Assembly (NCBI GenBank): GCA_002162755.1 | Contig: MAAS01000005.1 | Location: forward strand, 1-64,000 | Reading direction: 5' to 3' | DNA: 64,000 nucleotides | Source: Gammaproteobacteria bacterium 50_400_T64 | GTDB lineage: Bacteria > Pseudomonadota > Gammaproteobacteria > Pseudomonadales > Porticoccaceae | Shown here: positions 34,862 to 49,393 of the stretch, in pieces | Layout of the letters: every line of letters starts with the position of its first letter | Numbering within the stretch: position 1 is the first letter of the stretch | The notes under the pieces: generated by a model | What the model saw: the letters and a program-made list of their open reading frames with translations, nothing else | What the model was told of the DNA's origin: nothing | The model's database searches: none | Position numbers and translations under genes: made by a program

Positions 34862-36334
34862 TTGCCAAAATCAGACTTTTCAATGCGAGACCAAAAGTGT
34901 CGTTTCATCGCCCTGCTTTCCGCTCTGTTAATATCCAGCTTTTTATTTATCAGCTTGGTCAGTTATTTTTCTGCGCATAAATCTATTGCCGCCCAGGTTG
35001 AAAAAACCACACTACCCCTTACAAGCGATAATATTTATTCAGAAATACAACGCGACTTATTAAAACCAATTTTCATATCCTCCATGATGGCAACAGATAC
35101 TTTTGTTCGAGACTGGGTTATAAATGGCGAAAATAAACACGAAGAAATTATTCATTATTTAAAAGAGATTAAAGAAAGTCATGGCGCTTTAACCAGCTTC
35201 TTTATATCTGAAAAAACGAAGACATATTACCACCCAAATGGCGTCTTAAGAAAAGTCAAGAAATCAAACAAAAACGACGCCTGGTATTTCCGCGTTAACG
35301 ACTTGGCTGCTGATTACGAGGTCAATGTTGACGCAGACATGGCTTACAAAGCAAAACTCACCATTTTTATCAACCACAAAATATTTGATTACAGCGGAGG
35401 GTATATTGGCGTTATTGGTGTTGGACTACCTGTAGATTCCGTTCAAACACTCATTGAAAGCTATAAAGAACGCTATGGTAGAGAGGTGTTTTTTATAGAC
35501 AAAGAAGGATTAGTTAAGCTGCACGGGGCTTCCTACAACGAGCCAAAAGACATACGAAAAATAGAGGGTCTCTCGGCAATAGCAAGCCAGATATCAAGCT
35601 CACAAAACAGCGCTATATCTTATAAAAACAATGGGAAAACCATCTATTTAAACAGCCGATTCATACCAGAATTCAACTGGTATCTTATTGTTGCACAGCA
35701 AAAAAGCGAAGACGAAACAAGAATACAAAACATATTAATAACAAACTTATTAGTTAGCCTGGCAGCATCGATTATAATTATATTTCTAGTCAGCATTATT
35801 ATTTCTGGTTACCAAAAGAGACTAGAAGCCATGGCAACAACGGACAAATTAACAGGCACAGCAAATCGTCAAATATTCAACGCTCTCTTCAAACAAGCCT
35901 CCACCCACTCCAAACGTAATAAACTACCACTTTCTGTAATAATGCTTGATATAGATTATTTTAAAAAAATCAACGACGAACATGGCCACCCAGCAGGAGA
36001 CCAAGTATTAAAAGAATTTTCAGAAACCATAAAAAGAATCATTAGAGAATCAGACAGTATATTTCGATGGGGAGGCGAAGAATTCCTTATCCTGCTACCC
36101 GACAGCAATATAAAAGCAGCCCACAAACTTGCCGATAAGATTCGTCTAACGGTGGAAAACATGACTGCAACATTCTCAGGGAAGCCCATAACAACAACCA
36201 TCAGCGCGGGAGTAGCGGGCATTACTGACACAGATACTGCTGATGATTTAATCTTACGTGCAGACAAAGCGCTTTATACCGCAAAAGAAAACGGCCGCAA
36301 TCGAGTAGAAAGCGCCGTTAGTAGCGAAACATGA
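34862..36334 (+). CDS. Cache-GGDEF diguanylate cyclase
   Basis: A 490-residue inner-membrane sensor that makes c-di-GMP. TM1 is at about 15-36, a periplasmic double-Cache-like ligand domain follows at about 40-285 (YHPNGVLRKV, YIGVIGVGLPVDSV), TM2 at about 297-318, and the GGDEF domain at about 325-485. The active site is WGGEEF and an inhibitory I-site RESD lies five residues before it, so it should be active and feedback-inhibited. The start is TTG 34862 after AGGAGG. The gene is clearly more AT-rich than argE and argA and looks like an insertion between them. Confidence 0.9.
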   Translation: MPKSDFSMRDQKCRFIALLSALLISSFLFISLVSYFSAHKSIAAQVEKTTLPLTSDNIYSEIQRDLLKPIFISSMMATDTFVRDWVINGENKHEEIIHYLKEIKESHGALTSFFISEKTKTYYHPNGVLRKVKKSNKNDAWYFRVNDLAADYEVNVDADMAYKAKLTIFINHKIFDYSGGYIGVIGVGLPVDSVQTLIESYKERYGREVFFIDKEGLVKLHGASYNEPKDIRKIEGLSAIASQISSSQNSAISYKNNGKTIYLNSRFIPEFNWYLIVAQQKSEDETRIQNILITNLLVSLAASIIIIFLVSIIISGYQKRLEAMATTDKLTGTANRQIFNALFKQASTHSKRNKLPLSVIMLDIDYFKKINDEHGHPAGDQVLKEFSETIKRIIRESDSIFRWGGEEFLILLPDSNIKAAHKLADKIRLTVENMTATFSGKPITTTISAGVAGITDTDTADDLILRADKALYTAKENGRNRVESAVSSET

Positions 36335-38577: not shown

Positions 38578-39993
38578 ATGCTTAAGTTTTTGAGGCGAAA
38601 AAAACAAGCTCCACCCGCTGCCTCAGCTTCCGTCAAACCAAACGTTGCATCTAAACCAGCTCAAACCCTTTCCCCTGAAACTGACACGCCCTTAAAAGAT
38701 CGTTTACAAAGTGTAGGTGCCAACAAGGGCAATGAGCTGGTGACCCTACTCAATATTGGCACCACTAAAAAAATGCTTGCGGGTGAGTATCTCTTTAGAG
38801 AAGGGGAGCCTGCCGACACGGGATATATTGTCCTCGATGGCGCAATAGAAGAACTTGTTATTTCCGACGAAAACGAAACTAGTCTTGGGGTTTATCCTGA
38901 AAAATCGTGGATCAACTTTCTTGATTTAAGTGGTACAGCCCATAGGGTGACAACTGCCCGAGCGAAAGAAACAAGCTCTGTACTCCTACTTGATGAGCGC
39001 CTACTCAACAGTATTGATGACGATGTACTACTTTTCATCTATCGTGAATTACACAAAAGCTCTGTCGAGGAAGCCGTCAGAAAAGAAGCCGAAAAGGCGG
39101 CCTTCGCTGCACAAAGCCAAGGCTTGGTCGATGCTATTTTTGACATACGCACAGCAGCCAAAGATCGCTCAAAAAATTCTGACCTCGCTCAAAATGTTAT
39201 CCAAAAAGTCCCCAAACTACCCATCGCCACAATCGGCCTGTTAAACAAACTCACCGATGACAGCACATCGACCAATGAGGTTGTTGACCTGGTAAAAAGT
39301 GACCCGTCACTCACCAGCGTGTTACTCAAAACCCTCAATTCAGCTGAATACAGCTTCGAAGAAAAAATCGCAGACGTGAATCACGCCGTGTCATTGCTCG
39401 GCTATATTGGCGTCTATCAAATTGTCATGTCTCAAAGCTTACGACAAAGCCTGCCTGACACCCCTGCATTTCGGAAGGTTTATACCCGCTCACTTGAAAT
39501 TTCCCATATCGCCTTTGCCATCTCACAAGCATCTGGCGTTGGCAAACCTGCGGAGATGGCCACTATCGGCCTTGTTCATTCCCTCGGCAATATCATCGTA
39601 GAGCTATTACGCCAACAAAATCCTAAACTCGAAAATTTAATTGAGTGCTTTGATGTCTCAGTCATCGGTGCTCAACTGCTACACACTTGGAATTTGCCTG
39701 AAGGTATATGGAAGGCCGTCGAACATCAGGACTCTCCTGAATTCACACCTGCGAAGAACATTCCTGAAGATATTTTGACCGCAACTGCCGTTTTATATGT
39801 GGCTCAACTCTGCCACCAACGTTTACACAAAGTGTCTGAGGCTCGCCTGCCGATGCTTTTTCTAGACGACTATTTATCGCAGCTCAACTGGAAAGGTTTA
39901 ACACTCGGCAACGTACTCGGCGAAAAGGTAGCTCCAAATTTGCGCAAGAAAGCCAAAGCCCTACCCGCATCATTAGCCTTACTCTTAGGCTAA
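38578..39993 (+). CDS. cyclic-nucleotide-binding + HDOD domain signalling protein
   Basis: A 471-residue cytoplasmic protein. The N-terminal 45 residues are a basic, Pro/Ala-rich linker. A cNMP/Crp-like sensor barrel spans about 57-150 (LAGEYLFREGEPADTGYIVL), then a charged helix, then an HDOD domain at about 190-400 (LPIATIGLLNKLTDDSTSTN, VVDLVKSDPSLTSVLLKTLN, IGLVHSLGNIIVELL). HDOD lacks the metal residues of HD phosphodiesterases and acts as a protein-binding module in chemotaxis, c-di-GMP and stress pathways. No catalytic activity is expected. The ligand of the sensor barrel is unknown. It stands alone behind three palindromes. Confidence 0.85.
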   Translation: MLKFLRRKKQAPPAASASVKPNVASKPAQTLSPETDTPLKDRLQSVGANKGNELVTLLNIGTTKKMLAGEYLFREGEPADTGYIVLDGAIEELVISDENETSLGVYPEKSWINFLDLSGTAHRVTTARAKETSSVLLLDERLLNSIDDDVLLFIYRELHKSSVEEAVRKEAEKAAFAAQSQGLVDAIFDIRTAAKDRSKNSDLAQNVIQKVPKLPIATIGLLNKLTDDSTSTNEVVDLVKSDPSLTSVLLKTLNSAEYSFEEKIADVNHAVSLLGYIGVYQIVMSQSLRQSLPDTPAFRKVYTRSLEISHIAFAISQASGVGKPAEMATIGLVHSLGNIIVELLRQQNPKLENLIECFDVSVIGAQLLHTWNLPEGIWKAVEHQDSPEFTPAKNIPEDILTATAVLYVAQLCHQRLHKVSEARLPMLFLDDYLSQLNWKGLTLGNVLGEKVAPNLRKKAKALPASLALLLG

Positions 39994-40226: not shown

Positions 40227-42404
40227 ATGAAGAAAAGCCTGCTGATGTTATGTATCGCGGCTCTAATTGGCGCCTTCTTCGCATTCGATTTACATCAAAC
40301 ACTCACACTCGAAGGCCTTAAAGCAGGGCTCGATCAAGCACAGGCTCGACTGGCCAGCGACCCCCTGCTGGTGGCCGGGGGCTTCTTTATTGTCTACGTC
40401 ATCGTTACCGGCCTGTCTTTGCCCGGTGCGGCTGTCATGTCTCTAGGCGGTGGTGCGCTCTTCGGCCTGTTGTGGGGCACGATTATTGTCTCCTTTGCCA
40501 GCTCCATCGGCGCCACACTCGCCTTCCTGGTGTCTCGCTTTGTGTTACGTGACACGGTGCAAAACCGCTTTGCTGATCGACTACAAACCATTAATGAAGG
40601 CATCGAAAAAAACGGCGCGTTTTATTTATTCACCCTTAGATTAGTGCCGGTCTTCCCCTTTTTCCTTATCAACCTGCTGATGGGTTTAACGCCGATTCGC
40701 ACTGCCACTTTTTATGCCGTGAGCCAAATTGGTATGCTAGCGGCCACCGTCGTATTTATTAATGCGGGTACCCAACTGGCCCAGCTCGATAGTTTGTCAG
40801 ACGTGCTGTCTCCCGGCCTGCTCGCCTCTTTTGTACTGCTCGGCATCTTTCCCCTGTTAGCCAAAAAAGTAGTCGCCATTATTCAGAGCCGACGCGTCTA
40901 CGCGAAGTGGCAACGCCCAGCCAAATTTGATCGCAATCTTATTGTCATTGGTGCCGGTGCTGGCGGGCTGGTCTCCAGCTATATCGCCGCTGCCGTTAAA
41001 GCGAAAGTCACTTTGGTCGAAGCGCATAAAATGGGCGGCGACTGCCTCAACACTGGCTGCGTGCCCAGCAAAGCCTTAATTAAGAGCGCTAAGATCGCGC
41101 AACATATTCGCCAGGGCGGCCGCTACGGGCTAGAGGATTCTGAACCCACCTTTTCTTTTCCAGAGGTGATGGCCCGCGTACAACGCATCATCGAGGCCGT
41201 AGAACCCCACGACAGCATTGAACGCTATAGCGAGCTTGGCGTTGATGTGGTGCAAGGCTATGCTCGCATCGTCGATCCCTGGACGGTTGAAATACGCAAG
41301 CCCGATGGCGCAAGCACTCGACTCACCACCCGCAGTATTATCATCGCTACCGGCGCCCGCCCTAGCGTGCCCGCTATACCCGGCATTGATGCTGTCGACT
41401 ATGTCACCAGCGATACGCTGTGGCGTGAATTCGCCAAACTTGAGTCAGCCCCCAAACGGCTAGTCATTTTAGGTGGCGGGCCGATTGGCTGCGAATTAGC
41501 CCAGAGCTTTGCGCGGCTCGGCTCAGCGGTGACGCAAATTCAGCGCGGGCCACGGCTGATGCCCCGCGAAGATGAAGAGGTCTCCGCACTGGCGCAAAGG
41601 CACCTAGAAGCAGACGGAGTACAGGTACTCACCAGCTGTAAAACACTGCGTTGCGAGTGTGAGGGCGATGATAAATACATTGTTGTTACATCTGCAGGGA
41701 AAGGCTCCACTGAAGGAGGCCGCAATAAAGAACAGCGCATCGCCTTCGATCAGCTGCTCGTTGCCGTCGGGCGTGAGGCGCGGCTTGAAGGCTTTGGCTT
41801 GGAAGAACTTGACATCGACACCCAACGTACTGTGCCAACCAACGACTACTTACAAACCCTCTACCCCAATATCTTTGCCGCCGGTGACGTCGCAGGCCCC
41901 TACCAATTTACCCACACCGCCTCACACCAGGCCTGGTATGCCGCCGTAAACGCCCTGTTCGGCCACCTGAAAAAGTTTAAGGTCGATTACCGAGTGATAC
42001 CCTGGACCACCTTTATCGACCCCGAAGTTGCCCGGGTTGGGCTCAATGAACAGGAGGCCAAAGCTCAGGGCATAAACGTTGAAATCACCCGCTTCGAACT
42101 CAAAGAACTGGATCGCGCCATTACCGAAAGTGCCACCGATGGCTTTGTGAAAGTGCTCACCGTGCCGGGTAAAGACCGCATTCTCGGCGTGACGATAGTG
42201 GGCGAACACGCCGGCGAACTGCTGGCCGAATTCGTGCTGGCCATGAAACACGGCCTGGGGCTGAATAAAATACTCGGCACCATTCACACCTACCCCACCT
42301 GGGCAGAGGCCAATAAATACGCTGCAGGGGAATGGAAACGCGCCCATGCACCAGAGGGTGTATTACGCTGGCTGCAACGCTATCACCAGTGGCGCAGAGG
42401 CTAA
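40227..42404 (+). CDS. fusion of a VTT/TVP38 membrane domain and a mercuric-reductase-like disulfide oxidoreductase
   Basis: A 725-residue two-part protein. Residues 1-215 are a DedA/TVP38-TMEM64 (VTT) membrane domain (LSLPGAAVMSLGGGALFGLL, FYLFTLRLVPVFPFFLINLL). From about 235 a complete class I pyridine nucleotide-disulfide oxidoreductase follows: FAD motif VIGAGAGGLVSSYIA, redox cysteines GGDCLNTGCVPSKAL, NAD motif ILGGGPIGCELAQSFA, FAD motif NIFAAGDVAG, and the C-terminal dimer motif HTYPTWAEANKYAAG with the catalytic His. It lacks the N-terminal HMA and C-terminal Cys pair of true MerA. It is followed by arsM 79 bases on, so a redox and transport role in arsenic metabolism is inferred. 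Confidence 0.88.
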   Translation: MKKSLLMLCIAALIGAFFAFDLHQTLTLEGLKAGLDQAQARLASDPLLVAGGFFIVYVIVTGLSLPGAAVMSLGGGALFGLLWGTIIVSFASSIGATLAFLVSRFVLRDTVQNRFADRLQTINEGIEKNGAFYLFTLRLVPVFPFFLINLLMGLTPIRTATFYAVSQIGMLAATVVFINAGTQLAQLDSLSDVLSPGLLASFVLLGIFPLLAKKVVAIIQSRRVYAKWQRPAKFDRNLIVIGAGAGGLVSSYIAAAVKAKVTLVEAHKMGGDCLNTGCVPSKALIKSAKIAQHIRQGGRYGLEDSEPTFSFPEVMARVQRIIEAVEPHDSIERYSELGVDVVQGYARIVDPWTVEIRKPDGASTRLTTRSIIIATGARPSVPAIPGIDAVDYVTSDTLWREFAKLESAPKRLVILGGGPIGCELAQSFARLGSAVTQIQRGPRLMPREDEEVSALAQRHLEADGVQVLTSCKTLRCECEGDDKYIVVTSAGKGSTEGGRNKEQRIAFDQLLVAVGREARLEGFGLEELDIDTQRTVPTNDYLQTLYPNIFAAGDVAGPYQFTHTASHQAWYAAVNALFGHLKKFKVDYRVIPWTTFIDPEVARVGLNEQEAKAQGINVEITRFELKELDRAITESATDGFVKVLTVPGKDRILGVTIVGEHAGELLAEFVLAMKHGLGLNKILGTIHTYPTWAEANKYAAGEWKRAHAPEGVLRWLQRYHQWRRG

Positions 42405-42483: not shown

Positions 42484-43521
42484 ATGCGCGACATCGTTAA
42501 AGACTACTACGGCAAACAACTACAAAGTACAGACGACCTGAAAACCAGTGCTTGCTGTGATATTTCCGCGCTACCGAGCTGGCTCAAACCACTCATCGAC
42601 AATATTCATCCGGACGTGCTCGCTCGCTATTACGGCTGCGGCCTGGTGTGCCCCAACCTGCTTAAAGGCTGCAAGATTTTAGACTTGGGTAGCGGTTCCG
42701 GGCGCGATGTTTACGCCCTCGCTCAACTCGCCGGCCCCAGCGGTGAAGTGGTTGGCGTCGATATGACCGACGAGCAACTGGCCGTTGCCGAGCAACACCG
42801 AGACTGGCACAGCGAAAAATTCGGCTATAGCAATGTGCGCTTTATGAAAGGTGATATTGAACGCCTGCACGAACTCGATCTTGAAGCGGGTAGCTTTGAT
42901 GTCATTGTGTCCAACTGCGTGATCAACCTCTGCACCGATAAAGACGCTGTGCTCGAAGGCATTCAACAGCTATTAAAGCCCGGCGGCGAATTTTACTTTT
43001 CCGATGTCTACGCCGACCGCCGCGTACCCGAAGCCGTGCGCAATGACTCCGTACTTTATGGCGAATGCCTTGGCGGAGCGCTGTACTGGAATGATTTTTT
43101 GCGCATCGCCACGAAAGCCGGCTTTGCCGACCCCCGACTGGTAGAAGACCGACCCCTTGAAATAACCGACCCCGAGCTTGCCGCCCAAACCGGCGACCTC
43201 AATTTCTTCTCCGCAACTTATCGCCTGTTTAAAAGCGACAAACTAGAAAGTGCCTGTGAAGATTTTGGCCAAAGCGTGGTTTATCGCGGCACCATCCCCA
43301 ACCTGCCCGAGCAGTTTATCCTCGACAAACACCACACTATTGAAACGGGAAAAACCTTTCCCGTGTGCGGAAACACCTGGCGCATGCTGCACGACAGCCG
43401 CTTTGCCGAGCACTTTGAATTTAACGGTGGCTTTAGTCATCACCTCGGTCTGTTTGAAGACTGCGGCTCAAGCATGCCCTTTAATACTAAAGCACAATGC
43501 AATGAGTCCAGTTGCTGCTAG
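42484..43521 (+). CDS. arsM: arsenite S-adenosylmethionine methyltransferase
   Basis: Methylates As(III) to methylated arsenicals in the cytoplasm. The 345 residues match the ArsM pattern from end to end: LKTSACC, YYGCG, the SAM motif ILDLGSGSGRDVYALAQL, VDMTDEQLAVAE, SNCVINL, YFSDVYADRRVPEAV and GECLGGALYW. The three arsenic-binding cysteines are C52, C145 and C195. The usual C-terminal domain is present (VVYRGTIPN, HFEFNGGFSHHLGLF). The protein ends in a further vicinal pair, SSCC. It is probably cotranscribed with the VTT-reductase fusion. Confidence 0.92.
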   Translation: MRDIVKDYYGKQLQSTDDLKTSACCDISALPSWLKPLIDNIHPDVLARYYGCGLVCPNLLKGCKILDLGSGSGRDVYALAQLAGPSGEVVGVDMTDEQLAVAEQHRDWHSEKFGYSNVRFMKGDIERLHELDLEAGSFDVIVSNCVINLCTDKDAVLEGIQQLLKPGGEFYFSDVYADRRVPEAVRNDSVLYGECLGGALYWNDFLRIATKAGFADPRLVEDRPLEITDPELAAQTGDLNFFSATYRLFKSDKLESACEDFGQSVVYRGTIPNLPEQFILDKHHTIETGKTFPVCGNTWRMLHDSRFAEHFEFNGGFSHHLGLFEDCGSSMPFNTKAQCNESSCC

Positions 43522-43551: not shown

Positions 43552-44808
43552 TCACGCAGCAAAGTGCAGCCCGTAGGTATTCCCTTGTTGCCAGACACAA
43601 GTCGCAAGGGTTTTTGCAAATCTGGCCGAACTAATCGCGATCGTATCGCTTTCTTTCAAACCCTTATCGCAGCTAATTTTGACGCCACCCAAAGGTGAAT
43701 AATCCAGTATTTCACAGGCAATAGCCGCCTCGTCTATTTGCAGGAGACCCTTTAATTGCTCCGTTTTCAGGCGCGTAAAATGGCGGCGCTCATCGGTGCG
43801 TGAAACAGGCAGGGTGTTGATGAAATTAATCGGCTGATAAGTTACCACCTGATCCATACGCTGGATGACGGATTCGTGAATGGAAATATTAATCGGCGGA
43901 TTACCGGGCTCGCCCTGTAACTGGCGAACACCCTGTTTTACGCCCAGCTTTTCCATCGCACCGTAGGCCCAACTGTAAGAGTCGTGCAAATCATCGGCAT
44001 GCATTTCTCCTCTGTAGGAAAGGTATTCATTGGAAAAATCGAGGCCCAGGGCTCTCGATTTACTCACCATCCAGCTCAGCGCCACATTCGATAACGTCGC
44101 CTGCTCATAACCGCCACCCACATCTGAATGCACTCCTGCAAACCAGGTTTGCTCCACTGTTTGATCACTATTAATTTCGCCCGTCCACAGCGCGGGCTGG
44201 AAGACTCCACGTTTTTCATCGATGGCCAAAGCCTGATAGGCGTTTTTAATATCAGGGCTAAGGTGGGTATTAAAAAAGCCCACCAGTGGTTTTGTGAAGC
44301 GGCCTAAAATAGGTGTTGGCGCACCGAGCGCACCCACCGTATCCCAAACGGCCATGAGTTGAATTTTAGGCTTTATATTTTCCGCATAAATCTGGGCATT
44401 TCTCTTCTCAGGAGGTGTGCGGTAATACTTATAAGCGATTGGTAAATTATGCAGATCATCCTTCGATAGCAGGCCGATGCAGCGCAACATACCACCAAGC
44501 GCTCTCGCCGTATAAGCTCCCCGACTAAAACCAAAACAGTAAAGCTCGTCACCTTGTTGATAATTGTGGACAATAAAACGATAAGCATCGAGCACATTTT
44601 GCTCAATCCCTTTGCCAAAAGCACCGCCTATAAATTTATCAACTGAATTGTACGTCCCCACTCCCTGATCATAAAACACCACCTGGTGTTTACCGTCTTT
44701 ACTGTAGGGCTTAATACTACGCAACAGTTTCACCACATTGGTGGGCTCTTCCGGCGTATTCCATGTACCATCACAACAAATCACAAGACGTTTATTCTGC
44801 AAATCCAT
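43552..44808 (-). CDS. DUF2235 alpha/beta hydrolase with C-terminal PilZ domain
   Basis: A 418-residue protein starting at ATG 44808 (MDLQNKRLV), which has GGAGAAGCAAA before it; the track's longer start adds 26 Cys-rich residues. Residues 5-300 are a DUF2235 hydrolase: VICCDGTWNTPEEPTNV, the nucleophile elbow CFGFSRGAYTARAL (Ser95), and WFAGVHSDVGGGY for the His. This fold includes Tle1-type phospholipases. Residues about 341-418 match PilZ: RRHFTR (R342/R346, RxxxR), then LDYSPLGGVKI (D369, S371, G374, DxSxxG), and YGLHFAA at the end. Both c-di-GMP-binding motifs are therefore complete. No T6SS gene or signal peptide is seen, so it is probably a cytoplasmic hydrolase switched by c-di-GMP (inference). 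Confidence 0.85.
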   Translation of the reverse strand: MDLQNKRLVICCDGTWNTPEEPTNVVKLLRSIKPYSKDGKHQVVFYDQGVGTYNSVDKFIGGAFGKGIEQNVLDAYRFIVHNYQQGDELYCFGFSRGAYTARALGGMLRCIGLLSKDDLHNLPIAYKYYRTPPEKRNAQIYAENIKPKIQLMAVWDTVGALGAPTPILGRFTKPLVGFFNTHLSPDIKNAYQALAIDEKRGVFQPALWTGEINSDQTVEQTWFAGVHSDVGGGYEQATLSNVALSWMVSKSRALGLDFSNEYLSYRGEMHADDLHDSYSWAYGAMEKLGVKQGVRQLQGEPGNPPINISIHESVIQRMDQVVTYQPINFINTLPVSRTDERRHFTRLKTEQLKGLLQIDEAAIACEILDYSPLGGVKISCDKGLKESDTIAISSARFAKTLATCVWQQGNTYGLHFAA

Positions 44809-45118: not shown

Positions 45119-45793
45119 ATGCCCATAACTACCCTTCAAACATTATTTCCAACAGCCTCTCGTGACGAGATAAGTGATCTGGAACACTCATTTTTGAATC
45201 ACTCAAAAGTAATTGAAGCCCCAAGCGACACGCTACTTTTCTCTCCTGGAGAGAGCTGTGAAAACTATCTATTCCTTCTGAAAGGGCAGGTAAAGGTTTT
45301 CTCGACAGCCAATAATGGGCGGGAAATTTTGCTGTACAGAATTAGACCGGGAGAAACCTGCATACTCTCAACAAATTGTTTTCTAGGTTCACAGCATTAC
45401 CCCGCCAGTGCAAAAACAGAGACGCATTGCCAAGCGCTTTCCATTCCGACTTCTGCATTGCGAAAGGCTATGAGCAAATCACCACTTGTACAATTACTGC
45501 TTATGGATGATCTATCCAGGCGCATCGGCTGCTTGATAGAGCTCGTCAGCGAGCTCGCTATGGAAAGGCTCGATGTCCGCCTTGCCCGCCATCTTCTTCA
45601 ACTTTGTACAAATAATCAGGTAGTTAATACCACCCATGAAGAATTGGCCAAAGAGGTCGGCACAGCTCGAGAAGTTATTAGCCGCCAACTGCGTAAGTTT
45701 GAAAACGAAGGCTGGATAGAAACAACGCGAGGGAAAATCATCATCCACCAACACACTCCCCTTAAAAACCTGTCCGAAGGGTTTTTTTGCTAA
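45119..45793 (+). CDS. Crp/Fnr family transcriptional regulator
   Basis: A 224-residue regulator. The N-terminal sensor barrel spans about 20-125 (LFSPGESCENYLFLLKGQVK), the dimer helix follows, and the C-terminal winged helix-turn-helix has TTHEELAKEVGTAREVISRQ as the recognition region. The Fnr N-terminal cysteine cluster is absent, and the cAMP-binding residues of CRP (RRSA) are not evident. Cysteines in RPGETCILSTNCFLGS suggest a redox or sulfur ligand, as in other Crp/Fnr proteins paired with DUF2892 membrane proteins (inference). The DUF2892 gene follows 100 bases on. Confidence 0.88.
   Translation: MPITTLQTLFPTASRDEISDLEHSFLNHSKVIEAPSDTLLFSPGESCENYLFLLKGQVKVFSTANNGREILLYRIRPGETCILSTNCFLGSQHYPASAKTETHCQALSIPTSALRKAMSKSPLVQLLLMDDLSRRIGCLIELVSELAMERLDVRLARHLLQLCTNNQVVNTTHEELAKEVGTAREVISRQLRKFENEGWIETTRGKIIIHQHTPLKNLSEGFFC
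45764..45788 (+). terminator. candidate intrinsic terminator overlapping the Crp/Fnr stop
   Basis: AAAAACC, 8-9 bases, then GGGTTTTTTT: an A/T-rich stem with a T-run, lying in the last codons of the gene. It is weak because the stem is mostly A-T pairs. Confidence 0.4.
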
Positions 45794-46126: not shown

Positions 46127-47282
46127 AAACATTTACTACTGCACCCTAATATAAGCCAGTGTAAACTGATGTCGTAATATCTTATATTTTTTCCACATGT
46201 TCTATATCAAAGTATTAAATAGAAGGTTCCGTTACCACCTACCTCACCAACTAAACCATTACGCCAAGATCGAATCACCATACGAAATGTCTTTATAGGT
46301 TTATCTGATTTCCCATACACAATGGCAACGCCACACCTTATAGTCACCCTGATTTTTACGAGTATAGACCTCAAAAATTTGCGCGCCTGCAATAGATCAA
46401 TGATGCCGAAAATAATTGATTCAATCACAACTTTAATCACTGCCTGAGTAATGCTGAAAATCCCAATTTATAAATAGCACCTATTCTCTTCACATTACCT
46501 ATTGATATGAATAAATTTTATCGCTGCCAATACGGAAGGCCGTGCATCGTCCTTCAGTTTAAAGTGACGACCGGTAAATCTCCCCTCACACTCCCAAGAA
46601 CATTCACTGCTCAGAAAAACACCATTTTAGTTAGCCTGAAAATTGGGGCTGAGATTTCAGCCTATTACAACCCAACAAAGAGCCAGGCATACCCCAATTC
46701 AAATCCATTCTTACTCTTACCTCGATCAGCAGAAACGTACTCACACCGACCTACTTAGCACGGTAGAAACCGTCATTGGGGATATCGAGAGTGGATCACG
46801 TATCAATATAATTGAGGTAATCGTGATCCTAACAGATCACTCTAAACGGCATATCCTGAGAGAAGACTCTAAATATGGGCGTACTGTAAAAGCAAAGGCA
46901 TTGCTGTTTAAGGCCAGTAAATCGCGACTAGACACTGTCATAAACAAGACCTCTACTCAAATAACATATGCAAATAATAGCGATGATAAAACCCCATTCT
47001 GAGAACTATGTCGACAAACACTGCAAGATACAAAGCTACTCTGTTTCACTATGAGAGATGGGGCACAAGCCCTTGGCAAGGCGGAACAAACCACCGTATC
47101 GCACTAGTGTTAAGTGAGGTATTCTCGCCTAATGATGAATGTCCTTACTTACAATCAACGAAGGGGTAATGTGAACGCATCATTTATTAATAGATTGATA
47201 GCTAATCCGTATTTTCAAGAAGGGTCACTTGTTCATCTACAGGCGTTACTGATCAAGAACAACAGTGGTAGTAAAAGCAATC
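46127..47282. other. long AT-rich stretch without an assignable gene
   Basis: About 1150 bases. Three ORFs in the track overlap it: 77 aa on minus at 46207-46440, 83 aa on plus at 46507-46758 and 119 aa on plus at 46643-47002. None has a recognised domain or a good ribosome site. The 119-aa frame contains a plausible protein-like run, TVETVIGDIESGSRINIIEV, so a decayed gene is possible. No IS ends, tRNA or strong hairpin were seen. The last 250 bases probably hold the promoter of the hemerythrin-EAL gene. Confidence 0.35.
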
Positions 47283-48995
47283 ATGAATGAGCACGTTATC
47301 TCTTTCTGGTCCGATGATCTTAGTACGGGCGTAGACGAGATCGATAATGATCATAAATCGCTATTCCAGATTTTTCAGAATGCCTACAGGGCAAGTCAAA
47401 CCCAGACTAACACTTCTGACCTCTATCGCATGATGGCGAATCTACTCAACTACACCGAAGTGCATTTCGCCCGTGAAGAAGCACTTATGGAAGCCACTCC
47501 CTACCCCTACCTGGATAAACATCGCGATATTCACTTCGAATTAATCAAGAATCTAAAAGAACAAATAGTACTCGTACAAAATAACAAACAGAACCCACAA
47601 CAATTCGTCATATTTTTAAAAGATTGGTTCATTGAACACATTAATGGTACTGATAAGCGCGTTGAACCCTATACCCGAATGCACCTTGAGAGCATTCAAC
47701 TGGCGACAGAAAACATAGGACCTTTAACAACGCTACGCTATTCACGTATTTTTTTGGTCGATGATGACAGTGCATTTTCTGAGCTATTACAGGCAATGAC
47801 TGAAGAAGTTGGATTCAGGGCTACAATCTATAACTCTAGTACCGAATTTCTTCATACTACAATTTCAAACCAGGACATTATTGTCCTCGACCTCAACATG
47901 CCCGATAAAGACGGCATTGAGGTAATGCGGGAGTTAGCTAACCAAGGTATAACACCGACTTTCATTCTTGTCAGCGGCTTTGACGACCGGGTTCTACAAT
48001 CTGCTCGACAGTTTGCCGAATCTCGGAAACTTCATGTTGCCGGCACTTTGAGTAAACCCGTATATTTTGAGAGTTTCACACAAGTTATTAAAGAAGCTAT
48101 CAATGAAAAAGCCATAAGCTATATTCAATCTAGCCTGACTGATTTCACACCTACCTCAGACCAAGCCGACCCAGAAAAAAACTCTAATAATATTGACAGA
48201 AAGAATGCCATTACTCTAGCTGAATTGAAACGAGGATTGGAGCAACAAGAATTTATCGTTCATCTGCAACCTCAAATTAAATTTTCAGATGGTTCTCTTT
48301 GCGGAGTAGAGGCTCTTGTTCGCTGGCAACACCCCGTTAGAGGCCTTGTTTTTCCGGATCAAATTATCCCTTTAGTTGAAAAAAACAAGCTCATGGCCGA
48401 GTTGACGCAAACTGTTATTCTTGAATCAATAAAATCCCTTACCAAACTAAAAGCGGCTAACATTGAAGTCTCTATTTCAGTCAACATTTCAGCTCAAAAT
48501 ATTGTTGACTTGAAATTCCCGGAAAGTCTCGATATTTTACTAAAAGCGCACAACCTTGAACCCGAACAATTTACTTTAGAATTAACCGAATCAGAAATAA
48601 TAACGGACACATCTATCGCTTTAGATATTTTCAATCGACTTAGAATGAAGGGTTTCTCACTATCCATCGATGATTTTGGCACTGGTGATTCATCATTAAA
48701 AAAACTCTATCAATCGCCTTTTTCTGAACTGAAAATTGATCAACACTTTGTCAGCCGAATGGCTGATGATCAAGAGGCAAACTCAATCGTGAGGATTTGC
48801 ACAATATTAGCCAATGAATTCAATATGACGACCGTTGCCGAGGGCATTGAAACTCGGGAAGTTTGGAATAAACTTGCCGAAATGGGGTGTGATATTGCCC
48901 AAGGTTACCTAATATCAAAACCATTACCCGTAGATCAATTAATTACCTGGGCAAAAAAACACAATCAATCAAGTGATTATCAATCATGCCCATAA
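47283..48995 (+). CDS. hemerythrin - response receiver - EAL phosphodiesterase
   Basis: A 570-residue cytoplasmic protein with three modules. A bacteriohemerythrin domain spans about 5-135, with di-iron ligands in FWSDDLSTGVDEIDNDHKSL, EVHFAREEALME, YLDKHRDIHFE and FIEHINGTDKR. A receiver domain spans about 155-275 (FLVDDDSAFSELL, phospho-acceptor region IIVLDLNMPDKDG, LSKPVYF). An EAL domain spans about 315-560 (GVEALVRWQHP, LELTESEIITD, SIDDFGTGDSSL, LKIDQHFV, TVAEGIET), with the catalytic motifs present. It should hydrolyse c-di-GMP in response to O2 or redox (through the hemerythrin) and phosphorylation. Start ATG 47283 gives the usual hemerythrin N-terminus. It overlaps the CBS gene by 10 bases. 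Confidence 0.9.
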   Translation: MNEHVISFWSDDLSTGVDEIDNDHKSLFQIFQNAYRASQTQTNTSDLYRMMANLLNYTEVHFAREEALMEATPYPYLDKHRDIHFELIKNLKEQIVLVQNNKQNPQQFVIFLKDWFIEHINGTDKRVEPYTRMHLESIQLATENIGPLTTLRYSRIFLVDDDSAFSELLQAMTEEVGFRATIYNSSTEFLHTTISNQDIIVLDLNMPDKDGIEVMRELANQGITPTFILVSGFDDRVLQSARQFAESRKLHVAGTLSKPVYFESFTQVIKEAINEKAISYIQSSLTDFTPTSDQADPEKNSNNIDRKNAITLAELKRGLEQQEFIVHLQPQIKFSDGSLCGVEALVRWQHPVRGLVFPDQIIPLVEKNKLMAELTQTVILESIKSLTKLKAANIEVSISVNISAQNIVDLKFPESLDILLKAHNLEPEQFTLELTESEIITDTSIALDIFNRLRMKGFSLSIDDFGTGDSSLKKLYQSPFSELKIDQHFVSRMADDQEANSIVRICTILANEFNMTTVAEGIETREVWNKLAEMGCDIAQGYLISKPLPVDQLITWAKKHNQSSDYQSCP

Positions 48996-49393
48996 TAGAT
49001 AGCCTAATGACCTCTACTGTCGTTTCCGTAGAAATGGATGACTCTCTTCAAGTCATTAAGCATATTTTTGAAAACACCAACTTCCATCACCTACTCGTCA
49101 CCAGTGACGATAAACTTATTGGTATAATTTCTGACCGAGATTTGCTTAAAGCAATCAGCCCTCATATCGACACCCCTTCAGAAACTAGTAGGGATTCTGC
49201 AACCATGAATAAACGAGCACATCAAATCATGAGCAGAAACCCTACCACTCTACACCCTGGCGCGACCACTCAAGATGCAATTAACCTATTTAACAATCAC
49301 GCGATTTCATGCATCCCTGTTATCGACGAGTCTCAAAAGCCCGTTGGCATTGTTAGCTGGCGCGATATTTTAAAAGCCATCGAAGAAATATAA
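48986..49393 (+). CDS. paired CBS-domain protein
   Basis: A 135-residue protein consisting of two CBS motifs (about 5-65 and 78-135): MTSTVVSVEMDDSLQVIKHI ... LIGIISDRDLL and IMSRNPTTLHPGATTQDAIN ... PVGIVSWRDILKAI. Free-standing CBS pairs bind adenine nucleotides and regulate partner proteins. It starts within the last codons of the hemerythrin-EAL gene (10-base overlap), so the two are coupled and an adenylate-sensing partner role is likely. Confidence 0.88.
   Translation: MPIIDSLMTSTVVSVEMDDSLQVIKHIFENTNFHHLLVTSDDKLIGIISDRDLLKAISPHIDTPSETSRDSATMNKRAHQIMSRNPTTLHPGATTQDAINLFNNHAISCIPVIDESQKPVGIVSWRDILKAIEEI

What the first reader, a model, noticed from the sequence alone, without database searches (positions are those of the whole stretch)
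43552..44808. DUF2235 hydrolase fused to a complete PilZ domain: candidate c-di-GMP-switched lipase
The protein joins a Tle1-like alpha/beta hydrolase (nucleophile GFSRG, Ser95) to a C-terminal about 78-residue domain with both c-di-GMP-binding motifs of PilZ: RxxxR at R342-R346 and DxSxxG at D369-G374. DUF2235 proteins are known mostly as T6SS phospholipase effectors or orphans. No secretion gene or signal is present here. A cytoplasmic hydrolase under direct second-messenger control would be a new arrangement to my knowledge, and the window also encodes c-di-GMP synthesis and breakdown.
Basis: partly seen in the sequence, partly recalled or inferred. Interest (0 to 1): 0.72.

Follow-up and report, generated by a model that had tools for sequence, protein, structure and literature searches.

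The report
Lipase-like enzyme with c-di-GMP sensor domain
A marine-type bacterium encodes a lipase-like enzyme joined to a domain that normally binds the bacterial signal molecule c-di-GMP, and dozens of other species keep the same pairing, which suggests that a second messenger directly controls an enzyme that probably acts on lipids; this has not been tested in the laboratory.

Summary
Window 43552-44808, minus strand, encodes a 418-residue protein: a DUF2235/Tle1-like hydrolase (PF09994, E=6e-83) followed by a PilZ domain. The window sequence alone scores no Pfam PilZ hit, but 27 of 36 full-length homologues do (best 2.6e-9). A profile of the tail finds the c-di-GMP-binding PilZ domains of BcsA and VCA0042, and the AlphaFold model gives a six-stranded barrel (pLDDT about 90 or more) whose best PDB matches are PilZ proteins, mostly solved with c-di-GMP bound. 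Ser95/Asp156/His227 and Arg342/Arg346 are invariant in 36 of 36. One correction: the second motif is really DxSxxxG. Here and in most of this clade the turn is one residue longer than canonical, and the invariant Gly is 375, not 374. The fusion is rare (about 1% of 960 sampled genomes) but old: at least 37 GTDB species, largely one clade. The window's genome has no T6SS sheath or VgrG gene. Most other carriers have a T6SS, but unlinked to this gene. Most likely a cytoplasmic serine (phospho)lipase or esterase gated by c-di-GMP. Ligand binding, substrate and direction of control are inferred. PilZ-enzyme fusions are known (BcsA, PrsW-PilZ); I found no DUF2235-PilZ report.

The parts
43552..44808 (-). 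Complete gene: DUF2235/Tle1-like hydrolase fused to a C-terminal PilZ domain, 418 aa plus stop; no signal peptide or transmembrane segment evident
   Evidence: hydropathy maximum 1.13 over 19 residues
44062..44793 (-). Hydrolase domain, residues 6-249 (PF09994), continuing to about residue 330 as in stand-alone DUF2235 proteins
   Evidence: 6.1e-83; G000:C30:44062-44793; Foldseek to Tle1 4o5p, 6sjl and TleB 9j3f
44524..44526 (-). Predicted catalytic nucleophile Ser95 (GFSRG)
   Evidence: invariant 36/36
44341..44343 (-). Predicted catalytic acid Asp156 (VWDTVG)
   Evidence: invariant 36/36; assignment by analogy with Tle1 family members
44128..44130 (-). Predicted catalytic His227 (GVHSDVGGG)
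   Evidence: invariant 36/36; aligned to 4o5p and 9j3f His
43555..43800 (-). PilZ domain, residues 337-418, six-stranded barrel
43771..43785 (-). RxxxR motif, R342-R346
   Evidence: both Arg invariant 36/36
43684..43704 (-). DxSxx(x)G motif D369-G375, one residue longer than canonical
   Evidence: D/N 36/36, S 33/36, G375 36/36
34862..36334 (+). dCache-GGDEF diguanylate cyclase, context only
   Evidence: GGDEF 3.4e-46
47265..48995 (+). Hemerythrin-REC-EAL protein, probable c-di-GMP phosphodiesterase, context only
   Evidence: EAL 2e-67

Best explanation
The gene makes a cytoplasmic serine hydrolase of the DUF2235/Tle1-like family, most likely an esterase or phospholipase with a Ser95-Asp156-His227 triad. 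A C-terminal PilZ domain is joined to the end of an otherwise complete DUF2235 domain. c-di-GMP binds the PilZ domain through R342, R346, D369 and S371, as in BcsA and YcgR, and shifts the flexible linker (about residues 331-345) to switch catalysis, access to substrate or membrane contact. Shown here by computation: the two domains, the intact catalytic and ligand motifs, their conservation, and the old, largely single-clade fusion. Inferred: c-di-GMP binding, activity on lipids, and the coupling between the two.
For: PF09994 at 6.1e-83. PilZ in 27 of 36 homologues and 29 of 35 tails. Tail profile hits BcsA and VCA0042. AlphaFold model with mean pLDDT 84.9, about 90 or more over the barrel, and a less certain linker (58 at residues 331-340). 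Isolated tail folds to the same barrel and matches MapZ, VCA0042 and PA0012 structures with c-di-GMP at query TM about 0.70. Catalytic and RxxxR residues invariant. The fused proteins fall largely in one clade, with 6 label changes against 33 in shuffles. No TssC or VgrG gene in this genome. 23 GGDEF domains in this genome. A diguanylate cyclase gene directly upstream of the fused gene in G880 and divergently adjacent in Hahella.
Against: The turn of the second motif is one residue longer than canonical here. No c-di-GMP-bound PilZ with that spacing was identified here. No conserved neighbour names a pathway. DUF2235 is best known from secreted effectors. No biochemical data exist.
Confidence: 0.6

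Rival explanations
1. The PilZ domain binds c-di-GMP but serves to place the enzyme (at the membrane, a pole or a partner) rather than to switch its catalysis.
For: YcgR and MapZ act by partner binding (established knowledge; MapZ-CheR1 is among the structure matches). The linker is modelled with low confidence.
Against: Here the sensor is fused in cis to an enzyme, as in BcsA, where control is direct. No partner gene is conserved next to it.
Confidence: 0.16
2. The PilZ domain no longer binds c-di-GMP and is a structural or protein-binding module; the longer DxSxxxG turn marks the loss.
For: 26 of 36 members have the longer turn and one has a turn of five. Ser is replaced in 3 of 36. Some PilZ domains are known not to bind (PMC10333796).
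Against: R342, R346 and G375 are invariant and position 369 is always D or N, across members with 35-82% identity to the query; a lost ligand site should drift.
Confidence: 0.15
3. It is a T6SS effector or other secreted phospholipase, with PilZ as a delivery or regulatory tag.
For: Tle1 and TleB are T6SS effectors. 16 of 20 other carriers have a TssC gene, against 61 of 195 genomes of the order.
Against: This genome and carriers G046, G880, G917 and G922 have no TssC match. No full-length VgrG gene lies near the fused gene in the T6SS-bearing carriers whose coordinates could be compared. No shared immunity-like neighbour. In the order sample 5 of the 7 T6SS-positive carriers are one family. 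c-di-GMP is a cytoplasmic signal.
Confidence: 0.07

Closest known systems
DUF2235 / T6SS Tle1-like phospholipases (PF09994; P. aeruginosa Tle1 4o5p, E. coli Tle1 6sjl, TleB 9j3f)
   Same: Same hydrolase fold, GxSxG nucleophile, GxHxDxGGG histidine motif; best structure matches
   Different: Compact orphan type without the large membrane-binding insert or extra domains; carries a PilZ domain; no T6SS in this genome
BcsA cellulose synthase (catalytic domain plus C-terminal PilZ)
   Same: Enzyme with C-terminal PilZ bearing RxxxR and DxSxxG; closest PilZ by sequence
   Different: Membrane glycosyltransferase, not a soluble hydrolase; canonical motif spacing
PrsW-PilZ proteins (PMC3482391; Leptospira LIC_20173, PMC12943098)
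   Same: A hydrolytic enzyme fused to PilZ
   Different: Membrane metalloprotease, unrelated catalytic fold
PA0012, MapZ, YcgR, VCA0042 c-di-GMP-bound PilZ proteins
   Same: Same barrel and ligand motifs
   Different: No enzyme in the same chain

Membership tests
PF09994 / DUF2235 Tle1-like hydrolase | Significant match to the family model | tested here: met
   278.9 bits, cut-off 27, E 6.1e-83
PF09994 / DUF2235 Tle1-like hydrolase | Intact Ser-Asp-His residues | tested here: met
   S95, D156, H227 invariant in 36/36
PF09994 / DUF2235 Tle1-like hydrolase | Lipase or phospholipase activity | not testable with these tools
   needs enzyme assay
T6SS effector (Tle1 type) | T6SS in the same genome | tested here: not met
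   no TssC and no VgrG in a 95%-complete genome; but TssC in 16 of 20 other carriers
T6SS effector (Tle1 type) | Linkage to vgrG/hcp/immunity gene | tested here: not met
   no full-length VgrG gene near the fused gene; no recurrent neighbour; hcp not searched
PilZ domain (PF07238) | Match to the family model | tested here: met
   Not for this sequence alone; 27/36 homologues, best 2.6e-9
PilZ domain (PF07238) | Six-stranded PilZ barrel | tested here: met
   models and Foldseek
c-di-GMP-binding (canonical) PilZ | RxxxR | tested here: met
   R342, R346 invariant 36/36
c-di-GMP-binding (canonical) PilZ | [DN]xSxxG at canonical spacing | tested here: inconclusive
   String present, but the homologous Gly is one residue further (DxSxxxG) in this protein and 25 others; canonical in 9 members
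c-di-GMP-binding (canonical) PilZ | Binds c-di-GMP | not testable with these tools
   needs binding assay

The most novel reading that the evidence does not exclude
An old, widely scattered class of cytoplasmic lipid hydrolases is gated directly by c-di-GMP, so that the switch between motile and attached life also changes membrane or storage lipid turnover at the enzyme level. The class uses a variant PilZ site with a one-residue-longer DxSxxxG turn.
Probability: 0.4. Interest if true: 0.7.

Novelty: new variant of a known kind. Interest (0 to 1): 0.52.

Why it matters
c-di-GMP is known to control polysaccharide synthesis, flagella, pili and transcription. Direct control of a lipase-like enzyme in one polypeptide would link the signal to lipid metabolism. 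It would also give a cellular, non-weapon role to part of the DUF2235 family, whose orphan members have no assigned function that I could find. The soluble, compact, single-chain form makes the question easy to test.

Tried and rejected
Chance motif: rejected, because homologues down to 35% identity keep the motif and hit the PilZ model. Frame error or false fusion: rejected, because the same fusion occurs in at least 37 GTDB species records and in complete chromosomes such as Rheinheimera sp. D18. Operon or pathway clue: no neighbour family recurs beyond two lineages; the neighbours of the window gene are shared only with its three close relatives. Anti-phage system: no PADLOC match. NCBIfam: no match. 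Promoter scan: no sigma-70-like site, uninformative. Literature: the two open-access papers with both terms do not describe the fusion; Galperin and Chou 2020 on PilZ architectures is not held, so a mention there cannot be excluded. L062 was scored as fused by my motif pattern, but it is only 338 residues long and is probably a false label. L061 was scored as not fused there, but its tail resembles a degenerate PilZ.

Full report
WHAT IS THERE. The gene lies on the minus strand, 44808 to 43552, 418 codons and a stop. Residues 6-249 match PF09994 (DUF2235, now 'T6SS phospholipase effector Tle1-like, catalytic domain') at 6.1e-83. Residues 1 to about 330 cover the length of stand-alone DUF2235 proteins: the family ends IHxSV...YxPxN, and many unfused relatives stop there. 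The remaining 80 or so residues are an added domain.

THE ADDED DOMAIN IS PilZ. Homologues settle it. Of 36 full-length relatives, 27 hit PF07238 (best 2.6e-9), and of 35 isolated tails, 29 do (best 1.2e-10). A profile of the tails finds BcsA (1.8e-5) and VCA0042 (0.004) in the PDB. The AlphaFold model of the whole protein (mean pLDDT 84.9) has a six-stranded barrel at pLDDT about 90 or more, and the tail alone folds the same way. Foldseek of the full model returns Tle1/TleB for one half and PilZ proteins for the other. For the tail alone, the best matches are PilZ proteins: BcsA, VCA0042, MapZ, Alg44, PA0012 and YcgR, most of them solved with c-di-GMP.

CONSERVATION. In 36 aligned fused proteins (35-82% identical to the window protein) Ser95, Asp156, His227, Arg342, Arg346, Cys365, Gly375, Trp406 and Gly413 are invariant. 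Position 369 is D in 28 and N in 8; position 371 is S in 33. Both halves therefore look maintained by selection.

A CORRECTION TO THE MOTIF. The Gly that opens the following strand (canonical motif Gly) is G375, not G374. In 26 of 36 members, including this one, three residues separate Ser from that Gly (DYSPLGGV, DFSQGSGA, NYSPGMGA), one more than canonical. Nine members (Hahella, Thiohalomonas and others) have the canonical two, and one has five. Three canonical PilZ proteins of the same genome (L113, L117, L118) have two. The loop contacts the ligand in known PilZ structures (established knowledge), so c-di-GMP binding is likely but not certain.

DISTRIBUTION. 37 of the 80 loci kept from the scan of 85,462 GTDB species carry the fusion: Rheinheimera, Marinobacter, Hahella, Thalassomonas, Aliikangiella, Alkalimonas, Oleiphilaceae, and MAGs assigned to Desulfuromonadaceae, Nitrospirales and Gemmatimonadales. 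In sampled genomes it is rare: 9 of 195 in the order, 2 of 369 in the class and 2 of 399 in the phylum, the window's genome included each time, while 156 of the 399 have some match, mostly to the hydrolase part. On a tree of the hydrolase part, 39 of 41 labelled fused proteins lie in one group with a few unfused ones inside: 6 label changes against about 33 in shuffles. This suggests one old fusion with some losses. One outlier (L110) is on a long branch and one (L062) is probably mislabelled.

CONTEXT. The gene is flanked by genes on the other strand: an arsenite-methyltransferase-like gene (42484-43521) and a CRP/FNR-like regulator (45119-45793). Upstream context is shared only with three close relatives, and no Pfam family recurs among immediate neighbours beyond two cases. 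c-di-GMP genes lie in the window (GGDEF 34862-36334, EAL 47265-48995), and the genome has 23 GGDEF domains and six other PilZ matches, so proximity in the window is weak evidence. Stronger hints: in G880 a membrane diguanylate cyclase gene ends just upstream of the fused gene on the same strand, and in Hahella a diguanylate cyclase gene is its divergent neighbour.

SECRETION. No signal peptide or transmembrane segment is evident. The genome has no TssC or VgrG gene. Unexpectedly, 16 of 20 other carriers have TssC, against 61 of 195 in the order. In the order sample that is 7 of 9 carriers against 54 of 186 others, but five of the seven are one family. In the T6SS-bearing carriers with G-handle coordinates (G028, G154, G072, G035, G101, G129, G191, G487) no full-length VgrG gene lies near the fused gene; the nearest is a weak, partial match about 30 kb away in G072. 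T6SS use is therefore unlikely for this gene but not excluded for the family.

MECHANISM. Most likely a cytoplasmic serine esterase or phospholipase gated by c-di-GMP through the linker between the domains, in the manner of BcsA. Shown by computation: domains, motifs, conservation, fusion history. Inferred: binding, substrate, direction of control. Alternatives are placement by c-di-GMP, loss of binding, or secretion.

NOVELTY. PilZ fused to enzymes is a known design (BcsA, in PMC10333796; PrsW, in PMC3482391, and PMC12943098). DUF2235 is known as a lipid-acting toxin or effector domain (PMC3482391 and the T6SS papers). No paper in the searched open-access library was found that describes DUF2235-PilZ. 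The key PilZ architecture review was not available. I rate it a new variant of a known kind.

Noticed in passing
window 43684-43704 and 26 of 36 homologues: PilZ second motif with a one-residue-longer turn (DxSxxxG) in most fused members, canonical in nine; a natural series for testing how the turn affects c-di-GMP binding
   Followed up: partly
G000:C29:62345-63364: A second DUF2235 protein (383-residue frame) in the same genome without a PilZ domain, very divergent from the window protein
   Followed up: partly
carriers G028, G154, G072, G035, G101, G129, G191, G487, G918-G921, G923-G926: Carriers of the fused gene have a T6SS sheath gene more often than the order at large (16 of 20 vs 61 of 195) although no linkage was seen; may be phylogeny or genome size
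   Followed up: partly
L139:1498-4100: Membrane diguanylate cyclase gene directly upstream of a DUF2235-PilZ gene on the same strand
   Followed up: partly
window 40227-42404: VTT (DedA-like) membrane domain fused to a mercuric-reductase-like pyridine nucleotide disulphide oxidoreductase
   Followed up: no
window 38578-39993: Cyclic-nucleotide-binding domain fused to HDOD
   Followed up: no
window 47265-49393: Hemerythrin-REC-EAL protein followed by an overlapping CBS-pair protein; a possible oxygen- or iron-sensing c-di-GMP phosphodiesterase
   Followed up: no
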